Part shown: positions 1 through 36,227 of the stretch, in pieces
Layout: each line of letters begins with the position of its first letter
Position numbering within the stretch: the first letter of the stretch is position 1
Source of the DNA: Apostichopus japonicus
Taxonomy: Eukaryota; Echinodermata; Holothuroidea; Aspidochirotida; Stichopodidae
Length of the DNA: 64,000 nt
Direction of reading: 5' to 3'
Assembly: GCF_037975245.1 (NCBI RefSeq)
Contig: NC_092567.1
Coordinates: 16,299,876 to 16,363,875 of the forward strand
Notes under the pieces: generated by a model
Told to the model about the DNA's origin: nothing
Database searches by the model: none
Seen by the model: only the letters and a program-made list of their open reading frames with translations
Translations under genes and position numbers: made by a program

Positions 1-386
1 AAGAGCAAAAGCTACTGAAGATATATTTTACAGAGTGGTTTAGGAGAGTATAGCAATGCAGTCTTATGAGTTAATGGGTATACAGTAATTAGTCAAAAGG
101 GGATAGACGGGAAAATGCGAGTGTGGATAAAGATGGAGGATAATGGGTTAGATAGTCCTTACTTGGATAGTGAGACTATGTTTGATTGAATGGTGCGAAG
201 AATTATCAAATATCCTTTCCCTGCTAAGGCAAACTGTGTCAGGACGGTTAGGTGAAAATTCCATTACTACTGGTACAACCATGTGAGACAGTGTGATTTT
301 GGAAGTTTAAGTTATCGCCCAAGTATTATATTGGCAGCAACAGGTTCTATAGACTAGACTACATAATAATGCCACATTCATCTTAC

Positions 387-12117: not shown

Positions 12118-15100
12118 TTACGCATCTCCCTGTCCGAGGGACTTGATCTCGGCAGCCAAGACATTTGTGATGTGAACGGCCTTCTTGGCTTCCTCTCCTC
12201 CGATGTTCTTCAGCGCGATTTCAGCTGCCTCTCTCACCGTTGAGATGAAATCATTCCTCCTGCGAATGACAAAATAAGGACCGCTTGCGAATGACAAAGA
12301 TTCAAAACCACTTCAAAAATAATGCAGAAAATTATCTTAAAATGTCTTTTTAAAGTTTTTTAAAATACATTTAAAACTACATAATTTTTCTCTAAGATTT
12401 CTTAAAGGTAAACCAATCAAAGGTAACCAAAGGTAAACCAATCAATTGGCCCCAAATTTTTAGAAATTTTAAACTTTTAAACTTTTCACAACACTTTTTC
12501 CTGGAAGTTCTGACCATCAGAGTGGTTCTCCAACATTAAAAAGTGTTAAATTAGATTCGCAAATGTCGCAAAGTGTGAAGATGTGTGACCATTATTTGAT
12601 TATCTAGCTCATCTGGGGATAATATATATATATGCCCTTAAAAACTGGCTTGACTTAATATATATACATGACTAGGTGACCATTTAACAATCTACAGTAC
12701 TAATTCTTCTGCTTACATCGACAAAGTCATTTAGCCAAACTTACCAGGTTTATTTAATCGAAAGTGGTAGAATCCATTCGACTCCTAACATTTTGATGCC
12801 CCGAGACATGCTCAACGACGTATTATTTTCTCACTAAATGGGAGTCGACTAAAACTTCACCTTTCAATCTTAGGAAACATCATGGCCTAACGATGCCTAG
12901 TGGTGTAGCTAATACTTACCAGATGTTGACCAGTTTATCTACGGCGGCTGTCGCTTTCATATGTCCCAGGGCTAGGCATCCACTTTGTCGGACCAGCCGG
13001 TCTCTATCCGATAACAGGTTCATCAGGACTTTTATCACTCTCTTGTTATTCTGATCGTCGACAGATCTGGCCAACGAGATGGCAGCCACGGCTCTCACGT
13101 TTGCCTCCGTATCGACGCAGAGATCGAGAAGGGCTTCGATGACCGAGGAACTCTTGAATTTACCTGATGGTCGAAAGATTCAAGGAACAAGTTTGAGAGA
13201 TGTCATTAAAGGCACATCCGGATAACCCTTGAAATTCACCTGATGGTGAAAGGACCAACTGAGTTCCTTAATGTCAAGCACAGCCAACAGATTGCTACTG
13301 AATAGAGGGATATGTAAAAGATAGGGGGCCTGACATTCTGCATCAGCTTTCCAAAATCAGCGAAACAGAACTTCGGTCCGTCAAACTATGTCTAGTTTTT
13401 TGGTCTTTGAGGTACACTCACAGATGGGCTATTTAGGTCAAATGAGCAAATGTTGAGGCAAAACTCACTTATGAATCATCCAAGTCCTACATCCATGACT
13501 AATAGTTATTAAAGCTTCACTTATTTGCCCTACCCACACAAACAGTCCCGCAACTCTGTGTGAGAAATATCAAAGCTTAACATATATCCATGTGACACTT
13601 ACTCGAGTCCAACATGCCTAAGTTGTGATGCTCACACGAGTCCTACAACTTGAAGGAAAAGTATCCAAGCTCAACATACGCCTATGTTATATTCATTCAA
13701 GTTATACCTGTATGCAACTATGTCCAAGCTTAACATACCTATGTTATATTCACTCAATTTAGTCACCGCTTTAGAGACAACTATCAAGCTAATAACTGAT
13801 CTGTGTTATGCTCACTTAAGTCCCACAACTGTGAGTTGCAAACTGTATTCAAGTTTAAGATATCTATGTTAAACTCACTCAAGTCCTACAACTCATGTGT
13901 TACAAGTATCCAAGCTTAGCATATCTTTGTTATAGTCACTCAATTCCTACACCTCATGAGTAACAAGTATCCAAGCTTAGCATATCTTTGTTATTCTCAC
14001 TCAATTCCCCCTTTCCTAAGTTTTACTTACTCAGGTTTTCAATGGCATCCAGTCTGACGGTAGATTCCATGTTAAAAACTTTATGCATCGTGTAAGTCTC
14101 CAATGCTTGTTCCTGCACTCTAACTTTAAAATCAACCTTCTCTCCATCTATGGTTACAAACTCTGTTGATTAAAGAAACAAAATATAGAGATTGACATGT
14201 ATTTCTGTGTAAAGCTTCTTCAATCTCTGTAGTGTAAAGACTATTCTCTACAATGATCTAGTATGCTATGACCTCACTATGTGTAAGACAGATTGTAATG
14301 ACCTCAGTCAGTCATCTCTGCAGTGTAAAGACTCAGTACCATATATAGTCTGCTAAGCATGTCTTCTTGGGACATAGTTTACAAATAATAAATGGTTATG
14401 AGTGCAATAGTGCAAATATTTCATGAGTTGAAAGTTGGAATGTTCCATTCAACTCGGCTGTGCCTCGTTGAATGGAACAAATTACATCTTTCAACGCATG
14501 AAATATTTGCACTATTGCACGAATGGAAACCATTCATTATTTGTTTTATACAACACCTTCAAATTTGGATATAATTGGATGTAAAATGCACTCATGCAAT
14601 AGATTGTTTTGAACAGACAGGTTTCTCTGCTCTCTTACCATTGAAAAAAGTGCTATCAAAAAAGTATAACACATGGTTCTATTTCATAGAGTGCAGTAGA
14701 GCGGATTTTGCACGCAATCGACGAGCAATTGACCAATCAAATGGCCAGAATATAATTAGGTGTTGTATAATATGCTATGACCTCACTATGTGTAAGACAG
14801 ATTGTTATGACCTCAGTACGCCTGTCAGGCTGTCACTTTCAGAGTGTGTATACTTTCAGTGCATAATGATTTTAATTAATGTCTAATTAATTGCATGGTG
14901 AATCAGACCTCAGTTACTATACAGCAGAATGCAATGCACACAATGCAAATTGGAATCAAAGTCGCACAAAAATGCTCACAAGCACGCATACAGGCGGAAT
15001 AATCTTGCAGAGTGTCACTGGCTAATTAACTAGGAGCTCAGGATTCTACTTGCAGCTAGGCCAAACTCAAAAATTGCTTTAGAAAATACGCGCAAAAGTG

Positions 15101-18100
15101 TCTTGAAACAATGAATTTGTCCTTCTTGAAACTTCTAAAATCATGTTTTCTCTTCTTCAACAATAATGAACGGCGTTATATACAGCTAGGGATAAAAATC
15201 ACTGTGCAGTTATAGTCTGCGGTGTCTGTTTCAAGTTTCACAGAACTAGATGACTGATCTGATAGTCCCCTTACTGTTGATTTTGGGCATTGCTGGAGGC
15301 CCCCATTACTTCAACATGCCTATCTATCTTACCTATTCATGAGAATTTTACATGACCTCTGTGACCTCTTAGAGCACCAGTGTTATCTCAGCATTACCAT
15401 GACAGCAATCAGAGCTGTTATAATTAGAATTTTAGGTTTACAGTCTTGCTCCAGGCCAAGAGCCTCTCACATGACTTTACAACTTAACCCTGGTAATTGG
15501 TAACTTGTCACACCTACACACTAAAGTGTGCACAATTCAATCAATCTCTCCTGGGGCACCACAGTGCACTACAACCACGTGTCCTCCGGGGAATTCCCAT
15601 AGGGTGCAGTCACAAACCGGCGCAAACAACTATATTTACAAGTTACCTCGCAAGTCCCCATTTATACACCTGGGTGAAGAGAGGCAATGGAGATAAAGCG
15701 CCTTGCCCAAGGACACAATGCAATGATCTGGCAAGGGCTCGATGTTTGAAACTATATCTCACCTAAGAAGGTCTTCCTATCCACTACTTGAGTTCCCTCC
15801 TCATCAACCTCCTGTGCTAGTATTGAGAGAATCCACTCTTGAGGCAGGTCCAGGTCCTTGAACTCTTCGTTGACAAACTTCTGGAAGCTCTCTCTGAATC
15901 TGTTTGATTTAGAAGAGAAAATAAATTTCAGCTGCCCACAAAGGACTCCAAACAAACTTAGAGGCTGAGCTTCCATTTACTTCAACATCAGAATGTTAAA
16001 TGTATTAAACAGTCATGCCATCACTGGGATGTCAGCTCAGCGGTTAAAGCCGGTGCCTTTCAACCATAAGGTCCCCGGTTGAGTCACTCTCAGATTAATG
16101 TATATTATCCAGTTACAGAGTTGTTGACAATTAACAATTCATAATCATGGACGTAAAATATGAATGTAAGAGACTGACTTCAGTCAGCTTGCAGCTTTAA
16201 TAAGCTAATGAGGCTTCTTTGCGAGTTCCTGCTTGCAGGAGGATCTCATATATACATACATCACATTCAAAACGTCTGCTGCTATTGATACAAGCAACAA
16301 AATATAAACATAGAAAACATGATGCACTGCTCCCAATGTTCTCATCCTATCTCATTATTCCGACAATGGCTACGAAAGCCAAAATCAGACGAAATGAAAG
16401 TGCCGATAAGATGGACGGAAAACATAAATATATATATTACAAGATTCAACTACCTTGATTTTCATCATGTCAAGCTAAGGTGAATCACACTCACAGTGTA
16501 GATGTGGGTGTGTATGTGTGGATGTAGGTGTTTTCAAACAGAATTTGGAGTCACTTCTTGACCGAACTCTAGCAGACCTGTGGGTACAGGTCATGGTGTT
16601 TTCTAACTGACAAAGTTTTGATTTTTGATTGTGATTGAGATAAAACACCATCATTTACTTTCACATTGAATTTATCTTTAACTGTCTTGTTTTAGGGGGG
16701 GAGGGGGGGGGGAGGATAATACTTACTCATTCCAAGGGACTTCGTTTCTGTCTCCAAACTGTCTCTCCCAGTAATCCTGATTCTCTTCCGTGATGGAGAC
16801 TTGTCTGTGGTGAGCATTGATGCGAGTACGCAGTGTGCTCTGGCGACTGACACCTGGACAAAACAGAGAGTAAATGATAATGAAATGAAATTAAGAGATG
16901 TTCAAGGATGATAGAGTAAAGGGAAACCTCAAGGTATGATATATATCCACTAAGAAGGAAGGATTTAGCATCCCTATAAACAGATGGAGTAGCCCAACCT
17001 ATGCGGGTCCATGTGAGCTTTACTGTCCACTCACAGTGTTGCACCCATTAATATTCAAAGGGTCACAGCTTTCCACAAACACACAGGTTTGGTAGAGGTA
17101 CAAGCTGATTGAAGGTATCATGTTCTTTTCTCCTTGGTGATTGCTGTAATAATAAACCTATGCAGGTCCAAGTGAGCTTGTCTGTCCACTCACAGTGTTG
17201 CACCATTAATACATGTTCAAAGGGTCACAGCTTTCCACAAACACGCTGGTTTTAGTAGAGGTACAACGTTGGTTGAAGGTAATTACGTTCTTTTCTCCTC
17301 TGTGATTGCTGTAATAATAAAGGTTTCCAACATTTACCAGACAATGGCACTGCTGTCAGTATAAACAGTTTTGCTTATACACTTTCACTACGAAAAATGT
17401 GACATGAAGGATCAAAGCTAAGGACTAAGTGATTTTGACTCTTGGGGGCACAATGATATCACTCACTGAAAACATGACAGCCTCTTGACATGACTCGAGA
17501 ATGATTATTATATCCCGCAGCGACAACACAATATTTAGTCGTGTCAGTGGGAGGCATCAGTAACTACCATATCTATCACAGCAAAAAAACAGTCCATGGT
17601 TAGGTTTGCTTTCATTTTCATAAACGTGTCCTTCAAGCAGAGAATTCACTCCAGTGACTTCCATTTGTCTGTTGTCTACAACCACTGTCTACATTGCGAT
17701 GTTCAATTCTTTGATAATTGATCAGCTTGAGGTGTTGTTGTACCTCCATTCATTCAAAATGTCACTTCCATACCTCCAAGCTTTGACTACTAATGTTTTG
17801 TTTTCCTTTAAAATTTATGTCTAATTTTACACTCCACAATTGGATGCATCCATAATGTGAATGTACCATAGGTACAGTATTGGTTATTTTATAAACTTCA
17901 CATCTCCTTTAGACAAACTAGTAACCCTATGTAGATGACAATTGGGTTGTCATGGCTATGTCATACATAGAGTACAACCTTAACACATGGCATGGCTTAA
18001 ATTTTGCCTGTGACATGGCCTGTTCAAGCATGTTGCATTTTGCAAAGTTGCTTATATCGTTTATCTACATATGAAGTGCGCACTCTAGTTGGATCGACAG

Positions 18101-21100
18101 GTCCAACAAGGATATCCGACAAAAAAAATTTTTTCCCCAAGAAATGATAAGGTGAGGGGGGGGGAAGCTTGCAATGGAGCGGACACCAGAGTAGGACATT
18201 GTGTAAAGGTGACAACAGATCACGCGAGACAATGAAGACTGAGAGTGCATAAGTCGTGAGAAGACATGTAAGTGAGGAAACAAAGTAAATAACTCTATGT
18301 TCACAGCCCCCGGTATTTACCTTTTTGTACAGTCGGTTGATTCAACTGTGAGAGTTTGTATTTCAAACTGCCAATGAGTTCACTGAAGGCATCATCGAAT
18401 GTTCGATCGTCTGTGAACATGATCCACTGGAGAGGTGCGAGCTGAAGACGCCTTTACGAAAAACAGAGAATGAAATAACACGTTTACAGTCAAGTGTCAA
18501 GCAAGATACGACGCACCACTGGAATTCTACCAGTCACAAACAGAAGTTCTTCAAAGTCTCAATCCAACCCTGCACTGCCATTCAACACACCCTCTAACAA
18601 AATATATACAGGAAGTTGGTTTATAGTAATGTCTGTTCACTATCATTGCACTTACAGTAATGAAAATTGTCCTAAGTTTGCATAGCTTCTTAGCTAATTA
18701 AATATAAGATACCATATGATGGATACAATCCACTTGAGAGGAAGTACATTTATAGTAATGACTGGTCACTATCGCTGCACTTAATGAAAATTGTCCTAAG
18801 TTTGCCTATTCTTAGCTAATTAAATATAAGATACCATATGGTAGATACTATCCCTTTGACATGAAGTTTGTTTATAATATGACTGTTCACTATCACTGCA
18901 CTTAATGAAAATTGTCCGAAGTTTGCATATTCTTAGCTAATTAAATCTAAGATACCATGTGGTGGATACAATCCCTTTGACATGAAGTTTGTTTATAGTA
19001 ATGACTGTTCACTTTCACTGTACTAAATGAAAATTGTCCCAAGGTTGCATAATCTTCGCTAATTTGCTCTTAGGAGTTTTTCTTCACAAAGATCTGTCGT
19101 GCAAGATATTTTGAGATGACAGTTGGGGTCGTGGCTTCTCTGACGATCTAAACTTGGCTCTACTGCATCAAAAGTACTATCATAGATGCTATTTATTTAT
19201 CATCCAAAATTATCCTCACGCAATAAGAGGACAGATTAGTCATGATGCAATCGAGACAAGTCGACTGGGTAAAATGCTCTCTGCAATTTTAGCACAAATC
19301 AATATGTTTCAATTTCTTTCTTTTTCTGGAATATTTAAAGTCAACTCTAGTGTTTCTCTAAAGTATGATGACATAGTTGATACGCTAACTGTACATAAAA
19401 TTGTACCAGAGAATGTGATCATAGTATACAGTACCCGGAGCAAGATTAAAGTCCCACGGTGCATTTAATCTCAACAGTCCTACAACTTTTTCTTTCAGTA
19501 ATATTGGTAGTAAATAATCACCCAACCACATCCATGTACTTTTTGGCCAAAAAGTTTGGCCCATTCGCAGAGATTGAACGAGTGAAAAGTTAAAACCTAA
19601 ATGAAAGGTGTCCCGTTTGTTGTAATCATTTTGGTTGAGAAGTAAGCATGCATCAGATTTAATGGGTCAATCCATGCCAAATCAACAGTGGCCTCCACGT
19701 CGACCCTCTCAGAATCGCCTGAAATTGATATGGTGTCTTGCCATATGTCTCAAAGGATGAAATTGGGCAAAAAAAAAATTTAAAAAATTTTCGTTGCTAG
19801 GATACGGCCCCGCCGAGCAACCAAATCCAGATTGCATTTTAAGAGCCCTTAATTTGTGTCAAGTTTGGAGGCATTTTTTGCATAAATGTAAAGTATTTTA
19901 TGTCTGATATTGCAGATATTGTGGAAGACATGTGGCCAGTCTTCGAATTTAGCTAATTTTGAGGAAAATTTACGGTCTCAATTTTTCGTAACAAGTAATT
20001 AAAATGGCAGAAAATGAGATAGGGGTCTTTTCTGGCCCTACTTTGAGTGTGCTCTATATTCACAAGCAGAGGCATGTTTGAGTTTTAATTTCCATAGGAT
20101 CCTTGTCCAGTGGTAATTGTACGGGAAAAGTGCCAAAAAAAAGTCAAGCGGGTCGTACGTTTTACGAACAGCGCCCTCAAACTTAAGAAATCTCACTTCT
20201 GGCCCTAATTGGGGGTCCATTTTGGGCCTGTGGGTATTTTTTTATTTTTTTTTAAATAGCATTTTTCAGGAGCGTATTGACCCTATTTTTAAAAACTCAA
20301 GTCAAAAAGTTGTGTATTTTGTGTTATCTACTCAAATTTGCGACTCGAATATTGCGAAAATCACTTCGTTCATATGTATGAAAATGCTTGCACAAGCCGA
20401 TTTGAGTAATTCAAATGACAACAACTTCTTAGCATTAGCATACAGGTGCTTAACAATTAGGAGGGTGGTCCACTAGCATAAGGACTACAAATAAACTGCA
20501 TTTTCAGGGTCATATGCCCAACGATGCCTGTGAACAGCGCCCTCAAACATCACATTTTACCAATATTTTGGGCTATTTTGGGCATTTCAAGGTCAAATTT
20601 GGTCACAATTGAAAGTTTTATTTTCGGTTTTTAATACAAAATTAGTAAGATATGTATAGTTATGATGCACAGAATGAGCTAAAACATCTTTTATATTAGT
20701 TATTAATGCTCTGATGAGCAGCTTAAAGTGGCGTATATGAGAGTTACATCAGCTCTACAGAAACATGCTTGCGAGGGCAAACAGTGGTAACATTGTATAT
20801 TCATTCAAAGAGATGTTAAACAATATTAAAAATTATTGAAATGTATTTATTAGAAGTGTTCTGTCTAGTACTCTTTGACTCCCTCTCACCCCCACCCCCC
20901 CCCCCCCCGAACACCCTCCCCATAGTGCACTATGCAGATTTGTATACATACAGTATGTGACTGACTTTTACTGCATAGAGACTGCATAAACATGCATATA
21001 CTGAATGTTTTGGTATGGTAATCTTCTGCTTAAAATTGTCTGTATGCATGTAACCCACCCCTCCCACCCACATCCTCTACCCAACCCTATATCAGAATAG

Positions 21101-24100
21101 AAAATGAATGTGAACCAGTGCGTACAGTGTGCACTATATATGTGTGTACATGTTCTGTACAGTGTTATTTTACACCAAGTACTATTTAAATACACACTGT
21201 CCAAAATCATGTACAGTATACACACTGTACATGTATGTACTGGTTAAAAATTCCTTTTAAAATATTAATTTAGTGAATAAGCAAATGCATACACTTCATT
21301 GCAAATATTTAAAAAGACATTGAAATATGCACAGTATGCACTATGCACTATATATGTGTGTACATGTTCAGTACAGTGTTATTTTTCACAAAGCACTTTT
21401 AAATAAACACTGTCCAAAATCATGTACAGTATACACACTGCACATTTATGTACTGGTTAAACATTCCTTATAAATTATTGAAAGTCTTTTAATTTATTGA
21501 ATTAGCAAAAGCATACACTACTGTACATTTCAAATATTTAAAATGACATTGATATATGCACAGTATTGAATGGAATGACCAGTACACAGTGTGCACTGTA
21601 CATTTAAAATGACATTGATATATGCACAGTATTGAATGGAATGACCAGTACACAGTGTGCACTGTACATTTAAAATGACATTGATATATGCACAGTATTG
21701 AATGGAATGACCAGTACACAGTGTGTACTGTACATGATTGTGGACAGTGTGTATTTATTTGCTTGGTGTAAAATAACACTGTACTGAACATGTACACACA
21801 TATATAGTGCACACTGTACGCACTGGTTCACAATATAGGGTTGGGTTGAGGATGTGGGTGGGAGGGGTGGGTTACATGCATACAGACAATTTGAAGCAGA
21901 AGATTACCATACCAAATAATTCAGTATACGTTGAATGCATGTTTATGCAGTCTCTATGCAGTAAAAGTCAGTCACATACTGTGTGTATACAAATCTGCAC
22001 AGTGCACTATGGGGAGGGTGTTGGGGGGGGGTGGGGGTGAGAGGGAGTCAAAGAGTATTAGACAGAACACTTTTAATAAATACATTTCAATAGTTTCTAA
22101 TGTTGTTTAACATCTCCTTGAATGAAGATACATGTTACCACTGTTTGCACTCGCAAGCATGTTTCTGTAGAGCTGATGTTTCTCATACGCTACTTTAAGC
22201 TGCTCATCAGAGCATTAATAACTAATATAAAAGATGTTTTAGCTCATTCTTTGCATCATAACTATACATATCTTACTAGTTTTGTATTAAAAACCGAAAA
22301 AAAACCTTTTAATTGTGACCAAATTTGACCTTGAAATGCCCAAAATAGCCCAAAATATTGGTAAAATGTGATGTTTGAGGGCGCTGTTCACAGGCATCGT
22401 TGGGCATATGACCCTGAAAATGCAGTTTATTTGTAGTCCTTATGCTAGTGGACCACCCTCCTAATTGTTAAGCACCTGTATGCTAATGCTAAGAAGTTGT
22501 TGTCATTTGAATTACTCAAATCGGCTTGTGCAAGCATTTTCATACATATGAACGAAGTGATTTTCGCAATATTCGAGTCGCAAATTTGAGTAGATAACAC
22601 AAAATACACAACTTTTTGACTTGAGTTTTTAAAAATAGGGTCAATACGCTCCTGAAAAATGCTATTTAAAAAAAAATAAAAAAATACCCACAGGCCCAAA
22701 ATGGACCCCCAATTAGGGCCAGAAGTGAGATTTCTTAAGTTTGAGGGCGCTGTTCGTAAAACGTACGACCCGCTTGACTTTGTTTTGGCACTTTTCCCGT
22801 ACAACTACCACTGGACAAGGATCCTATGGAAATTAAAACTCAAACATGCCTCTGCTTGTGAATATAGAGCACATTCAAAGTAGGGCCAGAAAAGACCCCT
22901 ATCTCATTTTCTGCCATTTTAATTACTTGTTACGAAAAATTGAGACCGTAAATTTTCCTCAAAATTAGCTAAATTCGAAGACTGGCCACATGTCTTCCAC
23001 AATATCTGCAATATCAGACATAAAATACTTTACATTTATGCAAAAAATGCCTCCAAACTTGACACAAATTAAGGGCTCTTAAAATGCAATCTGGATTTGG
23101 TTGCTAGGCGGGGCCGTATCCTAGCAACGAAAATTTTTAAAATTTTTTTTTTGCCCAATTTCATCCTTTGAGACATATGGCAAGACACCATATCAATTTC
23201 AGGCGATTCTGAGAGGGTCGACGTGGAATCGACCCAAAAATCTGTTGATTTGGCATGGATTGACCCTAATGTTCTCCTCCGGAACAAAGCAATTTCAAAG
23301 AAAGGGACTCCTTTGTTTTGGACTGAATTTTTCATTCACTCATCTCCTGAGAATGGGCCAAATTTGGACAAGTGCATTGTCATGACTTTTTGATGATTTA
23401 CTATACAATAGAAGCCTATACCAGAAATGGTTGAAGCGTGAAGGATGGGATAAGCTTGCATTGATAATGGAATACTAAGAGGGGCTTTTTTTATAGCAAG
23501 AGCCTCTTAGTGATATTCTACTCACATGCCAAAATCCATCCCGGAACTGAGCTCGTCAAATGGTTTTAGACCGCAGGGAAATATTGGCTTACTGGAGACA
23601 TACGCCAGGGCGAGTTCATCCTTACAGTACCTCGAAGCAAGAGAAGTTGGACTCAAAATGGCCAGGAAGAGCTAATGGGATGAATCGAGAGATATTAAAG
23701 AAAATGAATTTATAACTGTCAATCAATTTTCTGTGATTCCGAAATATTTTTTAAATGCTATTTATTTACCATCATTCCATAAATCTACAGAAAATTAAGA
23801 TTCATTTCAAATAGGAAAGAAACAATTTTAGAAAGTTTTGAAAAATTCAAAATGTCTGTCTGACTGATCACCTAATGGAATTGATTAATATAACAATTAA
23901 AGCCCCCAAATTAACATTTACTTTGAGTGTCTAAATTTGGTTTAAATACATTTTGCATTCTTATTTTGGTGTATAAACTGTAATACTTGGCAAGTTTTGT
24001 AAAAAGTTTTGACCAACAGCAAAACAGCTCTTCTTCAACATTTACATTTTTAACTACCATACTGTAAATTACCTCAGAAAAGGAAAAAAAGATAAATTGG

Positions 24101-27100
24101 TATTGACATGAAATCATCACTTCGGGAGATACTCATGTAATGAAAACAAATCTTTTGGCATACAGTATATTGTAAATGCAGTAGGTCAATGGTCCACCCA
24201 AACAGGAGTTTTTATAGGCCTAAATTAGCTCTTCTTCTATTCTACTCATCTCTCCTATATAATACAAGTTAATATACTTTATTGATGCTGTTTTCCTTCA
24301 GTTTTTTCTTATTTAGTTTGCTACATATTTTTGGACAATCTAATGGGGACTTGTAGCCAAACTGTAAGACCTAATTGTTTTGAGGGATGTCCAGGAAACC
24401 CCCCTCTACCCCCCCCCCCAAAAAAAGCCCCTTGTAGGCATACTATACCTTTGCATCGATAATAGCCTGTCCAATCTTACTGAGGAATTCTGCTCCAGCT
24501 GACAAATCAGACTCGTCCACCCAGACGGTAACCCCAGTATCTTCTAGAGCAGCTGGAAGATTTAGAAAAGATCAGTTTAATACACACACAGTACACTACA
24601 CTGTATGTCTCAATAGGAGAAGATGCATGCTAATCTTAATGTACATTTCATGTTTCATTTCATTTCATTTATTTGTTTCTCCTTGTTACAGGGTATGACA
24701 GGTTTAACAGTTAATGGTCACTAACATGAATGTAATTACAATGTGGAAGGTAACCCCGATATCTTCTAGTGCAGCTGGAAGATGTGCCCAGAGAAAAGAT
24801 CAGTTTAATACACACACACACACACACACAGAGAGTACACTACACTGTACAGTATGTCTTAATAGGAGAAGATGCATGCTAATCTTAATGTACATTTCAT
24901 TTATCAATTCATTTCATTTATTGGTCATCCTTGTTAACAGTAAATAGTTTACTAACATTAATGTAATTACAAGAAGGAAGGAAGTGGGCTAGAAACCCTT
25001 GCCAGGCTTAACGAGTAGTGCCACACCTCCATGCAAAGGAAAATATATCACAAGCCAAAACAAAAACCAAACGCTCCCCCAACCTTACACTCCCTCCAGA
25101 GGGGAAAAAAATTATCGTAATATACAGTACTGTATTGAGGAAAAAAGGAAAAAAGTCAACAGAAATGAGGCACCTATCTAACAGCAGAGAACATTGAAAG
25201 GAGTACTGTAGTCCTAAAAGCAATTACTGTACTTAAATAGAATGAGCTGAGATTCTTTAAAGTGAATGTGCTGGAACAATATTTTTCAGAGTACTAGGCA
25301 AAGAATTACAACAAGTTATAGCAATATACAGTAGCATGATAAGGTAAACTACAGTATATGGGCAATTCCACGGTTACTCACGTTACATTTTTGAAGACTT
25401 TGGCTTACAAATGGTCTGATAGCTCCACCATTCATTAATTTGAATGACTGCTCTCTATGCATTGATTGGGTAACAAATTTACCTGAACATTGGTAAAAAC
25501 ACAATTTGATTATCTTGTTTCTTGTAGGATATAGGTACATGAAAGTGTCGGTTACTCACGTTACATTTGAAAATCACCCTGACGCCAAAAATAAACTTCA
25601 TTCAAAAAGTGTCCTCATACTGGATATATTTGAAGAAAATGAATTCATGTTTTTTGGACCTTAGGTGATGATACAAATACTGAACACAATCAAAATCACA
25701 TCTGGTTTCCTGTCTCGGTGAAAATGAGGCATTCACCGGTTACTCACGTTACGGTTACTCACGTTACAGTTTGTCCACCTATACAATACATAGGGAATCA
25801 AGAGTCTGTGAGGAACTTGCTGCTAGGAAACACCCATATATCAGTGGAATTGACATTTTGAACATCTTCTCCAGTGTAATTCAATAATATTACAATCTAA
25901 AAGAGATATATACCATGTCCTTTTGAGATAATGCATGAATCATATCTTCACAAATCGGCAGCAAATTCTGGACATTGTAGTTAAGTTTTATTTGAGGACT
26001 AGCAGTGTGTCAAACTTTAATGTACCCAGATATAATACTCAGGGAACTAAATGTTTCTGGGGAAGTAACAGGCCAACTGAACAAGAACCATGAATCAATA
26101 AGAAATTGGTAACATATGATATGGTATATATAGGAAGAGGCTTTCTCTTCGAGAGCTGATTCATTCAGTCTTCAAAAGGCGACAGAAAATTTGAAGTGCC
26201 TACGGTTATTGGCCAAGGTTGGTGCATCAAGTTTGGTGATGAGTTTCTCCTGGGATAGAATATCTTGTCCCTTGGGTTTGGCCATTTCCAATTGGGCACA
26301 GCTGGCTGCATCACTGACACTTGTACGTCATTCTGGTCCCCATTTGCTTCTATTACACCGGGGTACAATACCCCTTCTTATTCACGGCATACCAGTCTAT
26401 ACCGAGTTCTTTACCAGCATTGCCACTCCCTGAGCAGGTTGCATTTTTCTGTGGCCTCCCTATCTCCTGAGGGGGGGGTATTCCTTTCAGCAGAGCTGTT
26501 GCCATAATCTGTAATGGTGAAGGAGATGACATCCTTGTTCTGTACCTGGCAAGTGATGTTTACTGGCCATTCCAACGATTTGCTTGGTATTCTCAAATAC
26601 AGATTTAAGACCGAGGTCGCTGTTTCTCGCCTCAATTTCAGCTTGCAGAAATTCTGGAGAAGCATTGTGTAAACTATTTACAGCATACATAAAGTTCTCA
26701 TGATATCTGCACATGCATACGTTATGTGGTAGCTTGTTGCTTAACAGGACATGTTTTGGTTGCAATTCGGCAAATTTGCTCTTGCCGACCTTGATGTTGG
26801 GATAGTCCTCCCGGAATAGGACGAAAGTTTCCATGATGGATGACGTCAAATGTCTCATTTGCTTCTTTATTGTGCCCCCTTATTTTGGCCAGATGTTGAC
26901 CACATCCTTCCTGCCTGGCGCCTGCCGACTGATGTCATCTCACTGTTAAAACTGCTGGATAACTTCAACAGTTTCATCATGGCGTAGCAGCAGTTGTTAG
27001 TTGATGGGTGAATGTAGTCGCCTAGCTCAGACCTGCAGAGATTAAGACAAACAGCTTTCCGGCAATGTGGTGTTTTGGGCAATCTGTCGCGTACTCTTGC

Positions 27101-30100
27101 TGTTGCTTTTGCATATGCTTGTGCACTGCTGAAAGGCAACTTCTTCATGGCCTCCTTCGTCTTCCTCTTCTCCCAGTAGGATGAAACTCGTCTTCTAGAG
27201 GCCACCCTCCTAGCTTCTTGCTGAATCTTCTTCATGGGTGATGGGAGAGTACTCTCCAGGTTTCTTGCTAACCCTAACCCTAACCCCTACTGCCCTCTCT
27301 TATTAAGCAATTATTTACAAGACAATATAGGCATTTCCTGCATTGTTTCAGTGCATTAGCTTGGTTACTCACGTTACACATTGGTTACTCACGTTACACA
27401 TTGGTTACTCACGTTACAGATTTCAGTGATCTATCACTCACACATGATGGGTCTCTCCTCATTAGTGATCTTGTTTCCACACTTGGGACTATGAGTACTA
27501 ACGAAATTATGGTTATCAGATTTCCACTTGTTAAAGAAATGTCACATATAGAAAAAGTTGTTTTTTCGGTTACTCACATTACATCAGTGATTGAGGTCTG
27601 AAAAATGTCTGTTCTGAAGTTGTCATGAAGAAATTTTGAAATGTTTTTCTGTCATAACACAGTCAACAGGAGTATCTATCAAAACGCATAATAAAACTAC
27701 TAGATACTATCTGATGAGTATCATATAGGATGGAATAGAATGTATGATACATTTTCAGGATTATTTTGAGTTCTCATCCTCCTTGATTATCTGAGCCATG
27801 TATTCAAAATTTGAGTGTTCGAGAAAAATTGCTTACCTATTCCACAAACTTAGATATGTATACTACAACATTAGACTGATAGCAGGTTGAAAACTGACAC
27901 TTCTTATTTTTAGGCCATGTCCCCTCCATCATGGAATTGCCCATATATGTTTTGGAATGTTAGTCCTAGGACCAGTTGGAGTGGGCTTGCGCATGTTGTT
28001 GGCCTGTCTCGTATTGTGCATGTGTCATTATTTGTTGCAAGTAATTAAATCTTTGAAGACAGACCTGAATTAAGGTTCTTTATATAATGTTATAAGCAAA
28101 AGTGGCTAAATGAACAAATTGTTTAAATCAGGCAATTTGAGAATATTGGCTATTCAAAGCAAATAGCTTGTTAGTGTGATAATTGTAGTTAGCAGACACT
28201 ATAAGGCAAATTGTTTTTTTCTGGAGAGTGACCTTTGACACAGTCACCATACTGTAGGTTCTGTAAGTAAGGTGATTATGGTTTCTATGTAGCTAAGAAG
28301 TCTATTGTTATTTTTGTGCATTGTACAATGTGTATTGTCTAAGCATTTACATGGTTCTAGTACACAAAAGGGACTTTGTTACAGTCATAAAGGTAATTTG
28401 CAACAGTTGGGTAGTGCTAATGCAAATAGAGGTGTTGTCTTGGACTCTTGGTTGACACCTTGATATTTTCTACAGAGCCTCAGGAGTGTTTTCAGTTACC
28501 AAATCACAAGCTTACAATCAAGCAGGAGGGTTTTGTCGAGAAAGAGCTTAAAAACCACTTGCATTCTGGGGCTATTGAAATCTGTGACACCAAACCAAAA
28601 TGTATTTCACCACGGGGGGTGTGTTCCCAAAAAATACACATCAAACATGAAATTGGTGTGACTTTCCCTTCTCGAGATATTGTGTTAATTACAAGGTTTT
28701 CAAAATTTGACCCAGGGCTAATAACCCCAAATGACCTTTGATGTCCACCAAAAAACAATAGGCTTCTTGTAATCATTTGGTACTTACATCAAACATGAAA
28801 TTGGTCTGACCTTCCCTTCTTGTGATAACGTGTTTACAAGGTTTTCAAATTTGACCCCTGGTGACCCCAAATGACCTTTGACCTCCACCAAAAATAATAG
28901 GCTTCTTGTACTCAATGTGGTACTTCCACACACCAAATAAGAAATTTGTCTGACCTACCCTGCTTGAGATATCTTCTTTACTGTACAAGCTGGGAGTCAC
29001 AAACGCACGAACACACACACGAACACATGGATACACAAATATGCCATCATGAATGTAAAGGTTACGATTATCATCGAAACCAAAAAGAGAGGGAAAAAAT
29101 TGTTATGCCTACGTGCATTGGCGACCAGTTCACTTTACAGTAGAGTGTCTGGTAACTAATTGTCCCCTGTACACTGATTTTTTTTATTTTTTTGGCAACA
29201 CGTACTGTACTGTACGGTGTGTGAGAGCGTGGTGGCCAATTGGCTAAGGCCTTGGACTTGTCATCTGGACAAGGATTGCTGAATTGATTCCTGCCTACTG
29301 TACATACAGGTAGTTCATTTACGGTGTGTCCTTGGGCAACATGCTTTATCAAATTGCCTCTCTCCACCCAGGGCTTAATGGGTACCTGTCAGGGTTGTTG
29401 ATTTTTTTGATTTTTTTAAAAAAATAAAAAAAATCGGATTTTTTTGATTTAAATCAGATTTTTTTGATTTAAATCGGATTTTTTTGATTTTTTTAAAACC
29501 ACATTTCAGTTGGACCCCATTGTTGCCTACATTATCACATATATGCACCCATATCCACCCAGATCATTATATCCCCACATTGGGGATATTATGGTGTTGA
29601 TCACTTTCAATTTGACCACATGTGACCCACTGCAGTGGCCATTTAATTCATCCAATTTGAACAAAACAAATGAGAGCAACGTATGGTGGTACCAAAAGTT
29701 GGTGGTGATCTCATATAGTTCCTGATATTCTCCCATTTGGCTTTTAAACACACTGTGATTGCTATGATGTGGGGATATACGTTGGCGGTTTAACGCCAGC
29801 TGATGTCTAGTTTTAATATATAAGCCTTATAGGCCTATAATATATTCAGAATACTTTGCAGGCTAATTAAACCTGGGCCCTGGGCCTCAATCAATTTCCC
29901 ATTGAACACACATGACCTAAGGCTACTGCAAGTCTAAGAATACCAATTCCAGTCATTCACTTGGGGAGCTTGTTTGTGCAAGCACTGTGGGCCTAACACT
30001 TCATAGTTTATCCATCAATATACATAGGAAATACATTCTGGTCCACTCCACTAGTGATAATTGGAGATTACACTAACACCTATTGTATTCTGGGGTGTTG

Positions 30101-33100
30101 TTTGAGCACTTGACTTATGAATTGAAGTGTCATGACTCATGCCTAAGACACCTTGTCCATTGGGCCTATTGATTGTGCCATGGATGGAGGTACCTCCATA
30201 ATTGTACACAGATCACATAGTGACCACTAGTCATCCAGTGAGCTCATTGCACTATATCATAATCACATGGACATACAGTAGCAGAACATTGCCAAGCCTT
30301 AGTCTTATCATATCTCAGCTAGAACACACCTAAATACAGTATGTCTGGTAGGAAACAGGATGCCATTTGGCATCATTTCAAGAAAATACCATCCAATACC
30401 ATGACTGGGTGCCGTGCGAAGTGTAACAACTGTGGGCATGAATTGCAAGGTCTTGTGAAGAGGATGAAAATTCACTACAACAAGTGCTCAGGGAAGGAAG
30501 ATGAAGGTGGTGCAAGTACTTCAACGCCTGCTCATGGGGATACAACTGGATACAATGAAAGGAATGGTCACCTCCTGTCTATCACCACTGAGTTGTGCCG
30601 CAACAAAACCAACCATGCAATACATCACTCAATATATCATATGCATGCATACAACTTTCATGGCATCAAAATATAGCAAACTACATTCCTGATTTTGTAG
30701 GGTTTAGCTACAAATTCCAGCGTAATGAGTATGGAAATTTAGTGTGTGAACGAACTACAGTGTACAGTATGTCTGGTTCAAGTAATCTAGGCCTAGTAAT
30801 TCTGGTACCACAGAGACTGGAAATAATGAGGGGGGTAGCCTGAATGTCTTACAATAAATTATTGTGTGTACTCTAATATAGAATTGGTGATTTGCAATGA
30901 TTTCAAGCAACTATTCACATAAAAAATGGAAAAGTAGTAAAAGTGATTTAAATCAGTGATTTTTTTGAAAAAAATCATCTGATTTAAATCGCGATTTAAA
31001 TCAGTGATTTTAATCAAGGTGATTTAAATCAAACAACCCTGGTACCTGTAAGGTAACTTGTCATTGGGTGCAGTATATAACTGCAGCCACCCGGAGGAAT
31101 TGTCTCTGGGACCTGTGGGTTGACCAGGGGTAATATAACGTCTACACAGCACTTTGAAACCTATCGCTGGTATAAAGCCGTACATGTACTGTATATAAAT
31201 TGAATATTATTATTATTCCTTTCAGTATAGGAAGATCTAGGTCTGTAGAGCTCTACAGAGCTCTGTCTTTGCAGTATTATTGCAAGTAGTTCTCTTTTGA
31301 CATCTGCAGGTATGAAAGTATTATTCATTGTAGGACTTAAACATTTGTATACATATATACTGTACATAATGCATCTTTGTGTCTGATAAATTAGCAACAT
31401 ACTGTACTGTATATGGAGCATGCTGTACACACAGGAAATAATTTTAGTGGTCAGATTTTGTGTAGAATTTGGAAAGCTCTGCATTTTCTTTTCTCTCTAT
31501 GAATACTCTATAGTTCCTGTGTAGAAAACTGCACACTTCATATGTTCTGTACATCTTTACACCGTTTGCATGGCAAACTTGACCAGGTTTATACTATTTT
31601 GGGATGTGAAAACTGAATAAATTATTTGTTACGCGTGCATGTACAGCATAGTGCATACAGTAATTACTATGTAATTACTGTACTGTACAGAGCAGCTGTG
31701 ATGACATCTATTTTAGAAGGTACAGTAAGTGATTAATCACTGAAAGAAACTCTCACCTTAAGAGAAAGCACTACTAGCAACAATAGGCCTTTATCGTTGA
31801 AGGTGGCTGGAGTGTTGAACACCAACCACACCATCTGGAGCAATCAATGACTGCAATGTAGCCTACTATCTATGTATTGCACTACATTGATGCATACTGC
31901 AATAGACTACAGTGCTAAATCCATACAGTACAGTACTGTAAGTCTGTTGCTAGCATGAGCAGTACAGTAAATAAGCAGTAAATAGTTAAACATCCTTTGT
32001 ACTGTAGAGGTACTCCCCCACCCCCCCCCCTCACTAGCCAATATGGGAGTACTGTACATGTATCAGTGGCGTAGCCAGCTTTCTATTGTTAGTCGGGCAA
32101 GATTTTTCTTAAGCAGGGGGGCAACCCTGTGATGGTTGATGGTAGGAATTACCAAGAAATATATATGGGAATATGGGCACCTAATGTGTAATATCATGTA
32201 ATATCTCGGTCTGATACCAAGTTCTGACCTTATATGAAGTGTGAACATGAGCCCTGAGGTATGAATACTTGTGATTAGAAAAAATGTAAAAAAAGAAGTA
32301 TTTTTAATTCATCACTTCATTTCATTTGGGGTGGGGGCAAGACTAGCACAAAGCAAATTTTTTTTTGGGGGGGGGATTGCCCCCATGGCTACACCAATGC
32401 TGTATATGCAAACTCTCAACTTATTCAGTCAAAATTGCTTCAGAGTATAATTGAAGTCCAGCTGTTTCAGCAATGTATGGCTACTATACCCAATGGACAC
32501 TTGAGAGATATATTTCTGTGTTTATCCATGGAGATAAAACTGTTTTACCTCCATGGTTTATCGTACTGTACCAGCCTTTACTTTATTGTAGACAAAACTC
32601 TAGTCTGCCCCCATATCCGATTGTTATTATAACCTCTCAATTCTACTGTGCACTGTACAGCCCATGGTCATACAAAGGAAAGTGTCACACAAAATGCCTT
32701 GTCATGCCCTTAAATCCTGTTATCTAAGGCCCTTTCATTTGTACCAGACACTAATAGTAATCTTGTGAACAATTGCCTCTGAATCTACTATATATACATG
32801 CTGTACAGTAAGCCTATAGTACAATACTACAGTGCATCAATTACAATTACAGTAGGCCTGCCTTACATGAACACGCTGCCTAACAGCCTAACAACCTGCA
32901 TCACATGCATGCACACCCTTATGAATAATATATGTTCAACTTACCAGTTGTCAATATAAATTGAAAGGAGAGTACAGTACTTAAAATTGATGGATATTGG
33001 ACAATATTATAGGACTTAATAATTAGTATATGATATACATGTACAATTGAAATATGATAGACTCCAATAAGGTAGCAATATTGTTACACAACGGACTGGA

Positions 33101-33541
33101 AATTGCACTATAAACAATAATATTGCCCCTCCCCCCCCCACCAATAAAAAAAAATCCTTCATTTTAGTAATAAAATGACAGTAACTTACATTTAATTTTC
33201 CTCATAAAGTCTTTATCTTGATGGCTGTAGGATATCATTACATCTTTGGGTTCCATGCTGTTTGTCCTGTGGGAGTCTGCTAAGACTAATCCGTGGGTAG
33301 CCTGATGGGTTGCCGAGGCAGACCCTGTACTTGCCTTCCTATCAGTGCCTCCTATCTGTGGGACCAGTTGTCCACCTTCTCCCGACTGGTTCTCACCAGA
33401 TTTCCGTCTCCTGTAGTGCTCTGGTGAGTGTCCAGGGGTGTGACGAGGGGATTGTCGAGGGGAACGTGACTTTGAAGTCGATTTGGACTTCTTGCTCTGA
33501 TATTTATTTTTATTTTTCTGGCTGCTACTACCGTTACCCAT
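12118..33541 (-). CDS. TIR-domain / HEAT-repeat protein with N-terminal myristoylation-type motif (complete, 9 exons)
   Basis: Coding exons, 5' to 3': 33541-33190, 24552-24449, 23671-23526, 18451-18321, 16853-16727, 15899-15763, 14162-14031, 13163-12920, 12259-12118 (TAA). All have AG/GT borders and all eight phases match, giving about 504 residues. Residues 1-50 start MGNGSSSQ (MGxxxS) and are rich in Lys, Arg and Ser. The TIR domain (about 98-235) shows DVMISYSHQDKDF (strand A), VTVWVDESDLSAG (strand B and BB loop), LFLAILSPTS (strand C), YCKDELALAY with E171 at the position of the catalytic Glu of TIR NADases, KPIFP (strand D) and LAPLQWIMF. A middle module (about 270-345) contains YWERQFGDRNEVPWNEF. 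Residues 365-495 form about three HEAT units (NVRAVAAISLARS, RLVRQSGCLALGHM, TVREAAEIALKNIG). The exact ortholog is not recognised. NADase or scaffold function is inferred from the family only. Confidence 0.88.
13490..14015. repeat. Minisatellite in a TIR-HEAT intron
   Basis: About eight imperfect copies of a 60-70-bp unit built on TATCCAAGCTTAACATA, CTATGTTATATTCACTCAA and GTCCTACAACT. It sits directly beside exon 7 (14162-14031). Confidence 0.8.
14380..14771. mobile_element. Two adjacent inverted-repeat (MITE-like) elements
   Basis: An inverted repeat at 14380-14544 pairs ACAAATAATAAATGGTT with AACCATTCATTATTTGT and GTGCAAATATTTCATG with its complement. Next to it, TTATACAACACCT (14547-14559) and AGGTGTTGTATAA (14759-14771) bound a second unit of about 225 bp. 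Confidence 0.65.
15640..15755. repeat. SINE-like repeat abutting exon 6
   Basis: The block with TTTATACACCTG, AATGGAGATAAA, GCCTTGCCCAA and ATGATCTGGC recurs at about 36228-36330. It ends within about 10 bp of the exon 6 donor (15762) of the TIR-HEAT gene. Confidence 0.7.
16025..16245 (+). repeat. tRNA-derived SINE, copy 1
   Basis: An A-box-like TCAGCTCAGCGGTTAAAG and a B-box-like GGTCCCCGGTTGAGTC start a body ending near CCTGCTTGCAGGAGGATC. The same body occurs inverted at about 36505-36725. It lies in a TIR-HEAT intron. Confidence 0.75.
16990..17325. repeat. Tandem duplication, about 170-bp unit
   Basis: Two copies share GTCCACTCACAGTGTTGCACC, CAAAGGGTCACAGCTTTCC and TGATTGCTGTAATAATAAA. 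The duplication lies in the intron upstream of exon 5 of the TIR-HEAT gene. Confidence 0.8.
18610..19060. repeat. Satellite-like array, about 120-bp unit, four copies
   Basis: The units share CTTAGCTAATTAAATATAAG, ATACCATATGGT, GACTGTTCACTATCACTGCA and AATGAAAATTGTCC. The array is just upstream of exon 4 of the TIR-HEAT gene. Confidence 0.85.
19545..23385. mobile_element. Large palindromic (fold-back) element in the TIR intron
   Basis: Two arms of about 1.55 kb, 19664-21240 and about 21715-23266, are near-identical inverted copies bounded by GGGTCAATCCATGCCAAATC and its complement. More diverged arms extend to about 19545 and 23385. The centre (21240-21715) holds a duplicated 200-bp block and three direct copies of a 66-bp unit (21529-21735). 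The open frames of 119 codons in the arms are mirror images of each other and match no protein I know. It lies between TIR exons 3 and 4. Confidence 0.9.
23526..24552 (-). CDS. TIR core exons 2 and 3 of the TIR-HEAT gene
   Basis: Exon 2 (24552-24449) encodes ALEDTGVTVWVDESDL through IGQAIIDAK. Exon 3 (23671-23526) encodes LFLAILSPTS, YCKDELALAYVSSKPIFP and GMDFG. Neither is obvious as a long open frame; both were found by following phase (1 then 0 then 2). Exon 3 holds the candidate catalytic Glu and lies only about 140 bp from the outer edge of the large inverted repeat that fills the next intron. Confidence 0.85.
24750..24975 (-). repeat. Partial tandem duplication of TIR exon 2 and its upstream intron
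   Basis: The block GGTAACCCCGATATCTTCTAGTGCAGCTGGAAGAT and the following CACACA and TTAATGTACATTTCAT sequence repeats 24525-24720, which includes the exon 2 acceptor and its first codons. The copy keeps the acceptor and about eight codons (one change gives Ile for Thr at one site), then breaks off, so it is an exon relic. Confidence 0.65.
25355..27948 (-). mobile_element. Decayed DNA transposon with terminal inverted repeats and repeated 15-mers
   Basis: TATATGGGCAATTCCA (25355-25370) and TGGAATTGCCCATATAT (27932-27948) are inverted termini. Seven perfect direct copies of GGTTACTCACGTTAC occur at 25372, 25550, 25738, 25753, 27363, 27383 and 27403, and one variant at 27568. The minus strand carries frameshifted fragments of one protein between 27235 and 26165. 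The element sits in intron 1 of the TIR-HEAT gene. The superfamily was not identified. Confidence 0.75.
26165..27235 (-). pseudogene. Broken transposon-encoded protein
   Basis: Three or four minus-strand fragments in different frames follow one another: 27235-26867 (basic, RRVASRRRVSSYWEKR, then a Cys/His stretch), 26858-26487 (KVGKSKFAELQPKHVLL, NVCMCRYHENF), 26665-26411 and 26368-26165 (NWKWPNPRDKIFYP). The KVGKSKFAELRPKHVLL / CxCxYHxN pattern is one I know from uncharacterised transposon-encoded proteins of invertebrates. The central catalytic part is missing. No native function can remain. Confidence 0.6.
28440..28995. repeat. Interspersed repeat of about 140-bp units with a perfect DR1 motif
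   Basis: Three diverged units share CATGAAATTGGT, ACAAGGTTTTCAAA, CCCCAAATGACCTTTGA and CTCCACCAAAAA..AATAGGC. In the second unit TGACCTTTGACCT (28872-28884) is, on the minus strand, AGGTCAAAGGTCA. Confidence 0.75.
29390..31041 (+). mobile_element. hAT-family element, non-autonomous, with BED-finger remnant
   Basis: It starts CAGGGTTGTTGATTTTTTT and ends AATCAAACAACCCTG, and is flanked by perfect 8-bp repeats GTACCTGT (29382-29389 and 31042-31049), the hAT signature. Subterminal DNA is built from GATTTAAATC. Inside, a frame at 30341-30676 encodes a BED-type zinc finger, but no RNase-H-like core follows. Confidence 0.9.
30341..30676 (+). pseudogene. BED zinc-finger fragment of a hAT transposase
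   Basis: Reads MSGRKQDAIWHHFKKIP then CRAKCNNCGHELQG and MKIHYNKCSG: the aromatic start and Cys-x2-Cys ... His ... Cys ligand set of a BED finger. The frame becomes non-family sequence after about residue 55 and stops at 111. Full transposases run several hundred residues, so this is a DNA-binding remnant, possibly a first exon. Confidence 0.75.
31216..33189. other. Remainder of TIR-HEAT intron 1
   Basis: Non-coding, with many TACTGTACAGTA-like strings (for example near 31672-31690 and 31925-31940). It includes the element at 32064-32399. Confidence 0.5.
32064..32399. mobile_element. hAT-like MITE, decayed
   Basis: The ends CAGTGGCGTAGCCAG and GGCTACACCAATG are inverted copies of the termini of the element at 48195-48588. 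Flanking target repeats are no longer exact. Confidence 0.5.
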
Positions 33542-35084: not shown

Positions 35085-35183
35085 GGAGACAGGTAAGCTC
35101 GTCACTCGTAAATATCCAAACCAGTAAGTTTTGGAGTATTTACTTCGTTCCTCGCTTACCTGTCTCCCCCCAACCTATGCACC
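35085..35183. repeat. Internal complementary region of the DIRS element
   Basis: Its left half is the reverse complement of 34301-34358 and its right half the reverse complement of the right terminus (to 41029). The junction falls in TTTTGGAG / TATTTACTTC. Confidence 0.85.
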
Positions 35184-36117: not shown

Positions 36118-36227
36118 TATTCCCCGCCTAACAAAATAACCCTGATCAGCGATAACCTGTCAAACATAGAGACAGATCCCTCCTCATTGCGGTAGCCAAA
36201 AAGCCCCCGACTGACAGTTTATCTAAA

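What the first reader, a model, noticed from the sequence alone, without database searches (positions are those of the whole stretch)
12118..33541. A TIR-HEAT protein with an apparently intact NADase-type active site and domain order opposite to SARM1
Nine exons with matching phases encode a full TIR domain, including the Cys-Lys-Asp-Glu-Leu block (E171) that aligns with the catalytic Glu of TIR NADases, followed by a middle module and HEAT repeats. In SARM1, an ARM solenoid before the TIR domain restrains it. Here a HEAT solenoid follows the TIR domain. I know no described vertebrate protein with this layout. It could be a second animal design of solenoid-controlled TIR enzyme, acting in innate immunity or cell death.
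Basis: partly seen in the sequence, partly recalled or inferred. Interest (0 to 1): 0.82.

Follow-up and report, generated by a model that had tools for sequence, protein, structure and literature searches.

The report
Echinoderm TIR–Cbl-EF–HEAT protein gene
A real nine-exon gene in an echinoderm genome encodes a protein that joins a TIR domain, of the type that in some relatives destroys the fuel molecule NAD+, to a short HEAT scaffold; whether it is really an enzyme is a good, directly testable question.

Summary
Nine minus-strand exons (33541-12118) with GT-AG borders and matching phases give one 504-residue protein: basic N-terminus starting MGNGSSS, TIR (101-227), Cbl-type EF-hand-like half motif (267-299), about four HEAT repeats (364-504). 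A diverged paralog on another contig has the same order and shares five introns in position and phase, so TIR and HEAT very probably belong to one gene. The host is not a vertebrate: its mitochondrial COX1 reads best with the echinoderm code. SARM1-like TIR exons lie elsewhere in the genome.

The glutamate (E171) is in nearly every TIR I aligned, Toll-like receptors included. A stricter test helps: of five residues needed for NADase activity in both AbTIR and TcpC, four are kept (S104, R114, D130, E171); Val became Ala, and the WxxxE Trp became Tyr. The beta-B aspartate is shared with SARM1, AbTIR and Cat1; four Toll-like rows have His. TIR-plus-Armadillo-fold proteins of unknown function are already reported in marine invertebrates; this architecture I did not find in print. 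Best reading: a probably membrane-tethered TIR NADase assembled by its Cbl-EF/HEAT tail (about 0.5); a non-enzymatic adaptor is the close rival.

The parts
33190..33541 (-). Exon 1: start codon, MGNGSSS plus basic N-terminal region, then betaA/alphaA of the TIR (S104 codon 33232-33230, R114 codon 33202-33200)
   Evidence: residues mapped; in-frame stop upstream of the ATG
33437..33541 (-). N-terminal 35 residues: myristoylation-type start (MGNGSSS; motif recalled) and K/R-rich stretch; absent from the paralog model
   Evidence: motif matches; 14 basic against 2 acidic residues in 8-50; given an MG start, 22% of 10000 shuffles match, so the motif alone is weak
24449..24552 (-). Exon 2: TIR betaB and BB loop, with D130 (codon 24517-24515)
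23526..23671 (-). Exon 3: TIR betaC to betaD, with Y167 (23629-23627) and E171 (23617-23615)
18321..18451 (-). Exon 4: C-terminal part of the TIR
   Evidence: aligned with the paralog
16727..16853 (-). Exon 5: linker and start of the Cbl-type EF-hand-like module (DYWERQFGDRNEVPW)
15763..15899 (-). Exon 6: rest of the EF-hand-like module
14031..14162 (-). Exon 7: end of the middle module and start of the first HEAT repeat (residue 364 on)
   Evidence: repeat borders placed by eye
12920..13163 (-). Exon 8: HEAT repeats 1 (end) to 3
   Evidence: (HEAT_2 E 4.2e-14 on the open frame around this exon)
12118..12259 (-). Exon 9: last HEAT repeat and stop codon
19694..23227 (.). Fold-back repeat inside intron 3 (arms 19694-20736 and 22185-23227, 99% complementary); not part of the protein

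Best explanation
One gene encodes a cytosolic protein with a myristoylation-type N-terminus, a TIR domain of the NADase type, a Cbl-type EF-hand-like half motif and a HEAT tail of about four repeats. Most likely it works as a TIR NAD+-consuming enzyme: the N-terminus tethers it to a membrane, the Cbl-EF/HEAT tail binds a partner or a second copy, and the clustering this causes brings TIR domains together so that they cleave NAD+ in stress or immune signalling. Shown here: gene model, domain order, paralog, aligned pocket residues, placement apart from SARM1 and from the Toll-like receptors of this genome. Inferred: membrane tether, clustering by the tail, NAD+ cleavage, immune role. The paralog probably lost catalysis and may act as partner or regulator.
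For: Gene model. Paralog with the same order, five shared introns in the same phase, TIR 46 of 136, middle 34 of 107 and HEAT 54 of 126 identical. Solved structures nearest to the two-sequence TIR profile: 7uwg 7.7e-8 (labelled 'Molecular chaperone Tir'; same sequence as 7uxu, which PMC11374754 calls AbTir), AbTIR 8g83 3e-7, bacterial TIR 7uxr 2.4e-6, Cat1 1.1e-5, SARM1 1.8e-5; TLR 1.5e-4, MyD88 0.083. Residues: S104, R114, D130 and E171 match AbTIR S140, R151, D167 and E208, needed in both AbTIR and TcpC (PMC11374754 section 13). The beta-B Asp is in SARM1 (recalled letters), AbTIR, Cat1 (its NADase activity recalled) and 7uxr (activity not stated), and is His in 4 of 4 LRR-TIR/TLR rows (LRRs checked for the three own-genome rows). 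Window-SARM1 global score 68 against a mean of 11, sd 5, maximum 34 in 500 shuffles. The tree keeps window and paralog together (100/81), apart from own LRR-TIRs and from SARM1 (no AU test was run).
Against: Trp-204 of AbTIR is Tyr (Y167) and Val-193 is Ala (A156); V193A inhibited AbTIR and the matching V229 mutant TcpC, though Cat1 has Ala there too. AbTIR also needs R215 and Y238, which I did not map. SARM1 and Cat1 lack the R151 match, and only 4 of 73 bacterial rows have S, R, D and E together (36 have S, D and E), so the set is not a signature of all NADases. The Asp is also in a C13 TIR of this genome of unknown activity. With the window sequence alone a TLR chain (4e-4) ranks above SARM1 (0.0034). 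The paralog keeps Glu but not Ser or Arg, and probably not Asp (a gap makes that place unsure), so the family does not need a full pocket. A myristoyl-type, basic N-terminus also fits an adaptor such as TRAM (recalled). No structure model, transcript or assay.
Confidence: 0.5

Rival explanations
1. A non-enzymatic TIR adaptor or scaffold: the TIR binds other TIR domains (for example of LRR-TIR receptors), the HEAT and Cbl-EF parts recruit downstream proteins, and the N-terminus holds it at the membrane.
For: The genome has LRR-TIR genes: seven like frames on C9 and one each on C8 and C19 are listed, and LRRs were confirmed in the three checked (C9, C8, C19). The paralog keeps the architecture but lost most pocket residues. 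Glu is kept also in Toll-like receptor TIRs (PMC7075850 passages). PMC6321704 (passage) reports that ecTIR-DC proteins have been proposed as adaptors or regulators.
Against: With the two-sequence profile the TIR lies nearer to NADase TIRs than to TLR or MyD88 TIRs, and it keeps the beta-B Asp that the LRR-TIR rows lack.
Confidence: 0.4
2. A second SARM1-type design: the HEAT tail is an autoinhibitory lock that senses a metabolite and releases the TIR. This overlaps with the best explanation (both are enzymes), so the odds need not sum to one.
For: A helical-repeat domain and a NADase-type TIR lie in one protein.
Against: No SAM match at E 1 or less; the solenoid has about four repeats, matched as HEAT_2, while Arm stays under its cut-off (0.23 on exon 8; 0.091 on the paralog); the order is reversed; no evidence of inhibition or of a ligand site.
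Confidence: 0.15
3. Two neighbouring genes, or a pseudogene, misread as one.
For: Introns are long (the first 8.6 kb) and one holds a mobile repeat; there is no RNA evidence.
Against: All phases match with no stop over 504 codons; the paralog has the same fusion and five shared introns.
Confidence: 0.03

Closest known systems
SARM1 (ARM-SAM-TIR NADase)
   Same: NADase-type TIR and a helical-repeat domain in one cytosolic protein; Ser, beta-B Asp and Glu align (SARM1 letters recalled)
   Different: Reverse order; HEAT not ARM; no SAM match; Cbl-type module instead; Tyr for Trp; SARM1-like TIR exons (66% and 47% identical to the recalled human TIR) lie elsewhere, on C15; not one clade in the tree
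Invertebrate ARM-TIR / ecTIR-DC proteins (PMC9334734, PMC4346834, PMC6836662, PMC6321704; passages read; Gerdol 2017 itself not read)
   Same: Animal proteins with a TIR and an Armadillo-type fold, function unknown or only proposed
   Different: The one ARM-bearing architecture described in a passage I read (ecTIR-DC family 6: ARM-like repeats, Death, two TIRs) differs; none of the passages shown names HEAT after a TIR or a Cbl-type module
Bacterial TIR NADases AbTIR and Cat1
   Same: Among the nearest solved TIR sequences; key residues shared
   Different: None of the 74 bacterial TIR frames fetched here matches a two-sequence profile of this HEAT region better than E 0.66
CBL / CBL-B tyrosine-kinase-binding domain, EF-hand-like part
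   Same: FW...F.....PW..F motif; the profile of both genes finds CBL-type ubiquitin ligases in 32 of 33 solved sequences listed, 31 of them at E 0.014 or less
   Different: About 27 residues align; no CBL SH2 or RING match; the calcium loop is not conserved between the two genes (by eye)
TRAM (TICAM2), a myristoylated TIR adaptor (recalled)
   Same: MG... start and membrane-type N-terminus before a TIR
   Different: No HEAT or Cbl-type part (recalled, not tested)

Membership tests
TIR domain superfamily | Full TIR profile match | tested here: met
   TIR_2 positions 1-122 of 122, E 4.5e-25
TIR NADase | Catalytic Glu at the alphaC position | tested here: met
   E171 aligns with E208 of AbTIR and with the SARM1 Glu; not discriminating, since the LRR-TIR rows have it too
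TIR NADase | Further residues needed in both AbTIR and TcpC (Ser, Arg, beta-B Asp, Val) | tested here: inconclusive
   S104, R114 and D130 kept, Val is Ala (table)
TIR NADase | Trp of the WxxxE motif | tested here: not met
   Y167; needed in AbTIR but not in TcpC
TIR NADase | Cleaves NAD+ | not testable with these tools
   Needs an assay
SARM1 | ARM-SAM-TIR order with C-terminal TIR | tested here: not met
   TIR at 101-227, HEAT at 364-504, no SAM match
SARM1 | One clade with SARM1 TIR | tested here: not met
   Tree: placed apart, but many forks are weak and no AU test was run; SARM1-like TIR exons found elsewhere on C15 (their ARM and SAM parts not checked)
Toll-like receptor TIR class | Groups with LRR-TIR receptors of the same genome | tested here: not met
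   the beta-B Asp place differs
ecTIR-DC / ARM-TIR proteins of invertebrates | Cytosolic TIR with Armadillo-type fold | tested here: inconclusive
   HEAT_2 match, but the source paper's family definitions were not readable here and no animal ortholog could be fetched
CBL EF-hand-like module (PF02761) | Match over the curated cut-off | tested here: met
   24.6 bits for the isolated module, 22.8 in the whole protein, cut-off 22; the paralog is under it at 19

The most novel reading that the evidence does not exclude
An animal NADase outside SARM1: a membrane-tethered TIR enzyme driven by a Cbl-type EF/HEAT tail, with a naturally pocket-poor paralog in the same genome that acts as its partner or brake. 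It could belong to the uncharacterised eukaryotic TIR clades of PMC13142454 (section 5), which I could not test.
Probability: 0.3. Interest if true: 0.8.

Novelty: new variant of a known kind. Interest (0 to 1): 0.48.

Why it matters
PMC7075850 (2020; passage) states that among animal TIRs only SARM1 had known NADase activity, and PMC13142454 (2026 preprint; section 5) states that several eukaryotic TIR clades are uncharacterised. This gene is a concrete candidate with a built-in control: two genes with the same architecture, one with most of the tested pocket residues and one without. A yes would give animals a second, differently built NADase; a no would show that a near-complete pocket in an animal TIR does not mean enzyme activity.

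Tried and rejected
Two separate genes: rejected because the paralog has the same fusion and shared intron phases.

SARM1 ortholog or fragment: rejected; SARM1-like TIR exons are elsewhere, and order and tree place differ.

Recent transfer of the whole protein from bacteria: not supported; none of the 74 bacterial TIR frames fetched matched the HEAT profile better than E 0.66 (the profile has two sequences, and its only control was those same two proteins). One cyanobacterial TIR (L006) joins the pair at 96/81 on long branches, which I do not read as origin, since the bacterial rows were chosen by patterns from this very TIR. The table shows 25 of 109 families, so other repeats in those proteins could be hidden.

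Viral collection: six pattern hits, no relative. PADLOC: 22 models, most of them TIR-bearing (SAVED-TIR, Argonaute-associated TIR, ThsB, RT-TIR), the best one (PDC-S66) without description, also a SEFIR model and, at 0.052, a CARF model; expected for any TIR.

My own early label 'TLR' for the C18 row was wrong: it is TIR with TPR repeats. The tree and the residue table still print it as own_TLR_C18; I count four LRR-TIR/TLR rows (C9, C8, C19 and the solved chain 7ylf) and leave C18 out (Arg at the Asp place). In the tree, row L075 was left out (too short), own SARM1 was one exon only, and 146 of 228 columns were used. Glu counts differ by alignment: 72 of 74 (L075 a gap, one Ala) and 70 of 73 (L075 dropped).

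Ortholog search in other animals: no animal collection was available beyond the window's genome.

Paper searches. In 'TIR-HEAT', 'HEAT-TIR' and 'TIR and HEAT' had no occurrence in the 20 of 22 papers listed. Passages of PMC8635717, PMC10022894, PMC8195603, PMC13093298 and PMC12521104 were seen and did not name this architecture. The library lacks most subscription journals, so this is not proof of absence.

Full report
What is there. The nine minus-strand exons join without a stop into 504 codons, with GT-AG borders and matching phases at all eight introns. HEAT-type helices begin near residues 364, 395, 430 and 463 (placed by eye, numbered), so the solenoid has about four repeats. The protein starts MGNGSSS, followed by a basic stretch; this looks like a myristoylation site, but given an MG start 22% of shuffles match the motif, so it is a lead, not a finding.

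Which organism. The window lies on contig C7 of a 671.6 Mb assembly. Its mitochondrial COX1 gives the expected residues at conserved places if AAA is Asn and ATA is Ile, which is the echinoderm code (flatworms share this code, and the likeness of the sequence to echinoderm COX1 is recalled). So the frame 'no described vertebrate protein' does not apply. The species was not identified.

Is it one gene. The own-genome search with residues 96-504 finds this locus and one other place with all parts, C15:28463765-28469482; otherwise only weak matches with E 0.14 or more, most of them to the TIR part on C13 and C16. At C15 I could build a complete 437-residue model with seven exons (one search had an error that one search corrects). 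It has the same order, TIR, Cbl-EF, HEAT, and five introns at the same place and phase as here; the window gene has three more and the paralog one more. Identity is 46 of 136 in the TIR, 34 of 107 in the middle and 54 of 126 in HEAT. The paralog model lacks the long N-terminus, and its Cbl_N2 match is under the cut-off at 19 bits. A profile of both middle modules finds CBL-type ubiquitin ligases in 32 of the 33 solved sequences listed, 31 of them at E 0.014 or less. In the genome PF02761 lists three places: two on C12 (one strong, 5.8e-28, taken to be CBL) and the C15 paralog under the cut-off; the window module, split by an intron, is not listed.

Is the pocket intact. The Glu argument does not carry. 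In one search, 72 of 74 bacterial relatives have Glu at this place (one gap, one Ala), 70 of 73, and so do all four LRR-TIR/TLR rows. PMC7075850 says the same from a much larger set (passages). I therefore used mutational data (PMC11374754, section 13 and passages). Needed in both AbTIR and TcpC: S140, R151, D167, V193 and E208 (AbTIR numbers). Needed in AbTIR only: W204 and Y238; R215 was needed in AbTIR and not tested in TcpC. I mapped the first five and W204; the AbTIR letters I had end before R215 and Y238. The window has S104, R114, D130, A156, Y167 and E171; the paralog has C, N, N, V, S, E, with a gap near the Asp place. The Asp is informative: it is present in SARM1 (recalled letters), AbTIR, Cat1 and 7uxr (activity of 7uxr not stated in any call), and is His in the three LRR-TIR genes checked here and in the solved TLR chain 7ylf (LRRs). 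It is also present in a C13 TIR of this genome and absent from a C16 one. Among 73 bacterial rows it is Asp in 39 and Ala in 34. Against my reading: A156 is a change that inhibited AbTIR, and V229 mutation inhibited TcpC, although Cat1 has Ala there naturally; R114 is not general (SARM1 has Ser and Cat1 Leu); the Trp is lost. The Trp is said to go with cyclic products and was dispensable in TcpC (passage), so a Tyr enzyme making plain ADP-ribose is possible; that is inference.

Where the TIR belongs. With the two-sequence profile, the nearest solved TIRs are AbTIR entries, 7uxr, Cat1 and SARM1 (1.8e-5), ahead of a TLR chain (1.5e-4) and MyD88 (0.083). With the window sequence alone the order is Cat1, 7uxr, AbTIR, then the TLR chain (4e-4), and SARM1 only at 0.0034. 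The tree of 85 rows puts window and paralog together (100/81), outside the group of own LRR-TIRs and away from SARM1, but it has 146 columns and many weak forks, and I ran no AU test. SARM1-like TIR exons are on C15:10298405-10299483; their ARM and SAM parts were not checked.

How it most likely works. I commit to a TIR NADase at about 0.5: tether, partner-binding tail, induced clustering, NAD+ cleavage. The adaptor reading is nearly as likely, since the paralog keeps the architecture without the pocket, the genome has TIR receptors, and the N-terminus also suits an adaptor. The SARM1-style lock has no direct evidence.

Novelty. TIR proteins with an Armadillo-type fold are already reported from Aplysia (10 with unknown function) and oyster, and 'evolutionary conserved' TIR families from invertebrates (PMC9334734, PMC4346834, PMC6321704, PMC6836662, PMC5549309; passages only). 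The defining paper (Gerdol 2017) could not be read. An amphioxus survey counts 28 TIR domain combinations there and about six in sea urchin (PMC2575513, passages; 12 of 25 places shown); the passages shown name no TIR-HEAT gene apart from SARM. My searches listed no paper that I recognised as describing TIR with a Cbl-type module and HEAT. Orthologs may well be in public databases as uncharacterised proteins; I could not look. Hence 'new variant of a known kind'.

Noticed in passing
window 19694-20736 and 22185-23227 (intron 3): Fold-back repeat: two 1043-nt arms, 99% complementary, 1448 nt apart, so the pre-mRNA could form a 1-kb hairpin. One search scored 40 of 350 candidates and lists 40 full-length arms (these two included) at 96-100% identity, many as facing pairs: a young mobile family.
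   Followed up: partly
L001:1-1308 (3' end of the C15 paralog): A 166-bp tandem array, 7.8 copies at 95% match, repeats the 3' end of the paralog's last coding exon (by eye).
   Followed up: partly
L089 (G000:C18:299916-300215): A long-frame gene with TPR-type repeats before a TIR, not a Toll-like receptor as I first labelled it; Arg stands at the beta-B Asp place.
   Followed up: partly
G000 C13, C16 and C22 (for example C13:25587450-25678071): Short TIR exons in local clusters; one row from each forms a tree group of its own with long branches. The C13 and C16 rows keep Glu, and the C13 row also the beta-B Asp.
   Followed up: partly
G000:C29:14745-31219: Pieces of mitochondrial COX1 with TGA codons on contig C29 besides the mitochondrial contig C35: nuclear copies or a second, broken mitochondrial contig.
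   Followed up: no
window 378-647 and 3875-4156 (-): Frames with CUB domains, probably exons of a neighbouring gene.
   Followed up: partly
window 58144-59064 (+): 306-codon frame matching DUF4532 (E 2.6e-23).
   Followed up: no
window 52251-54638 (-): Open frame of 795 codons, rich in charged residues, without a Pfam match at 0.01.
   Followed up: no
window 35140-36159 (-): 339-codon frame that reads like a recombinase of a DIRS-type mobile element (by eye); no Pfam match at 0.01.
   Followed up: no
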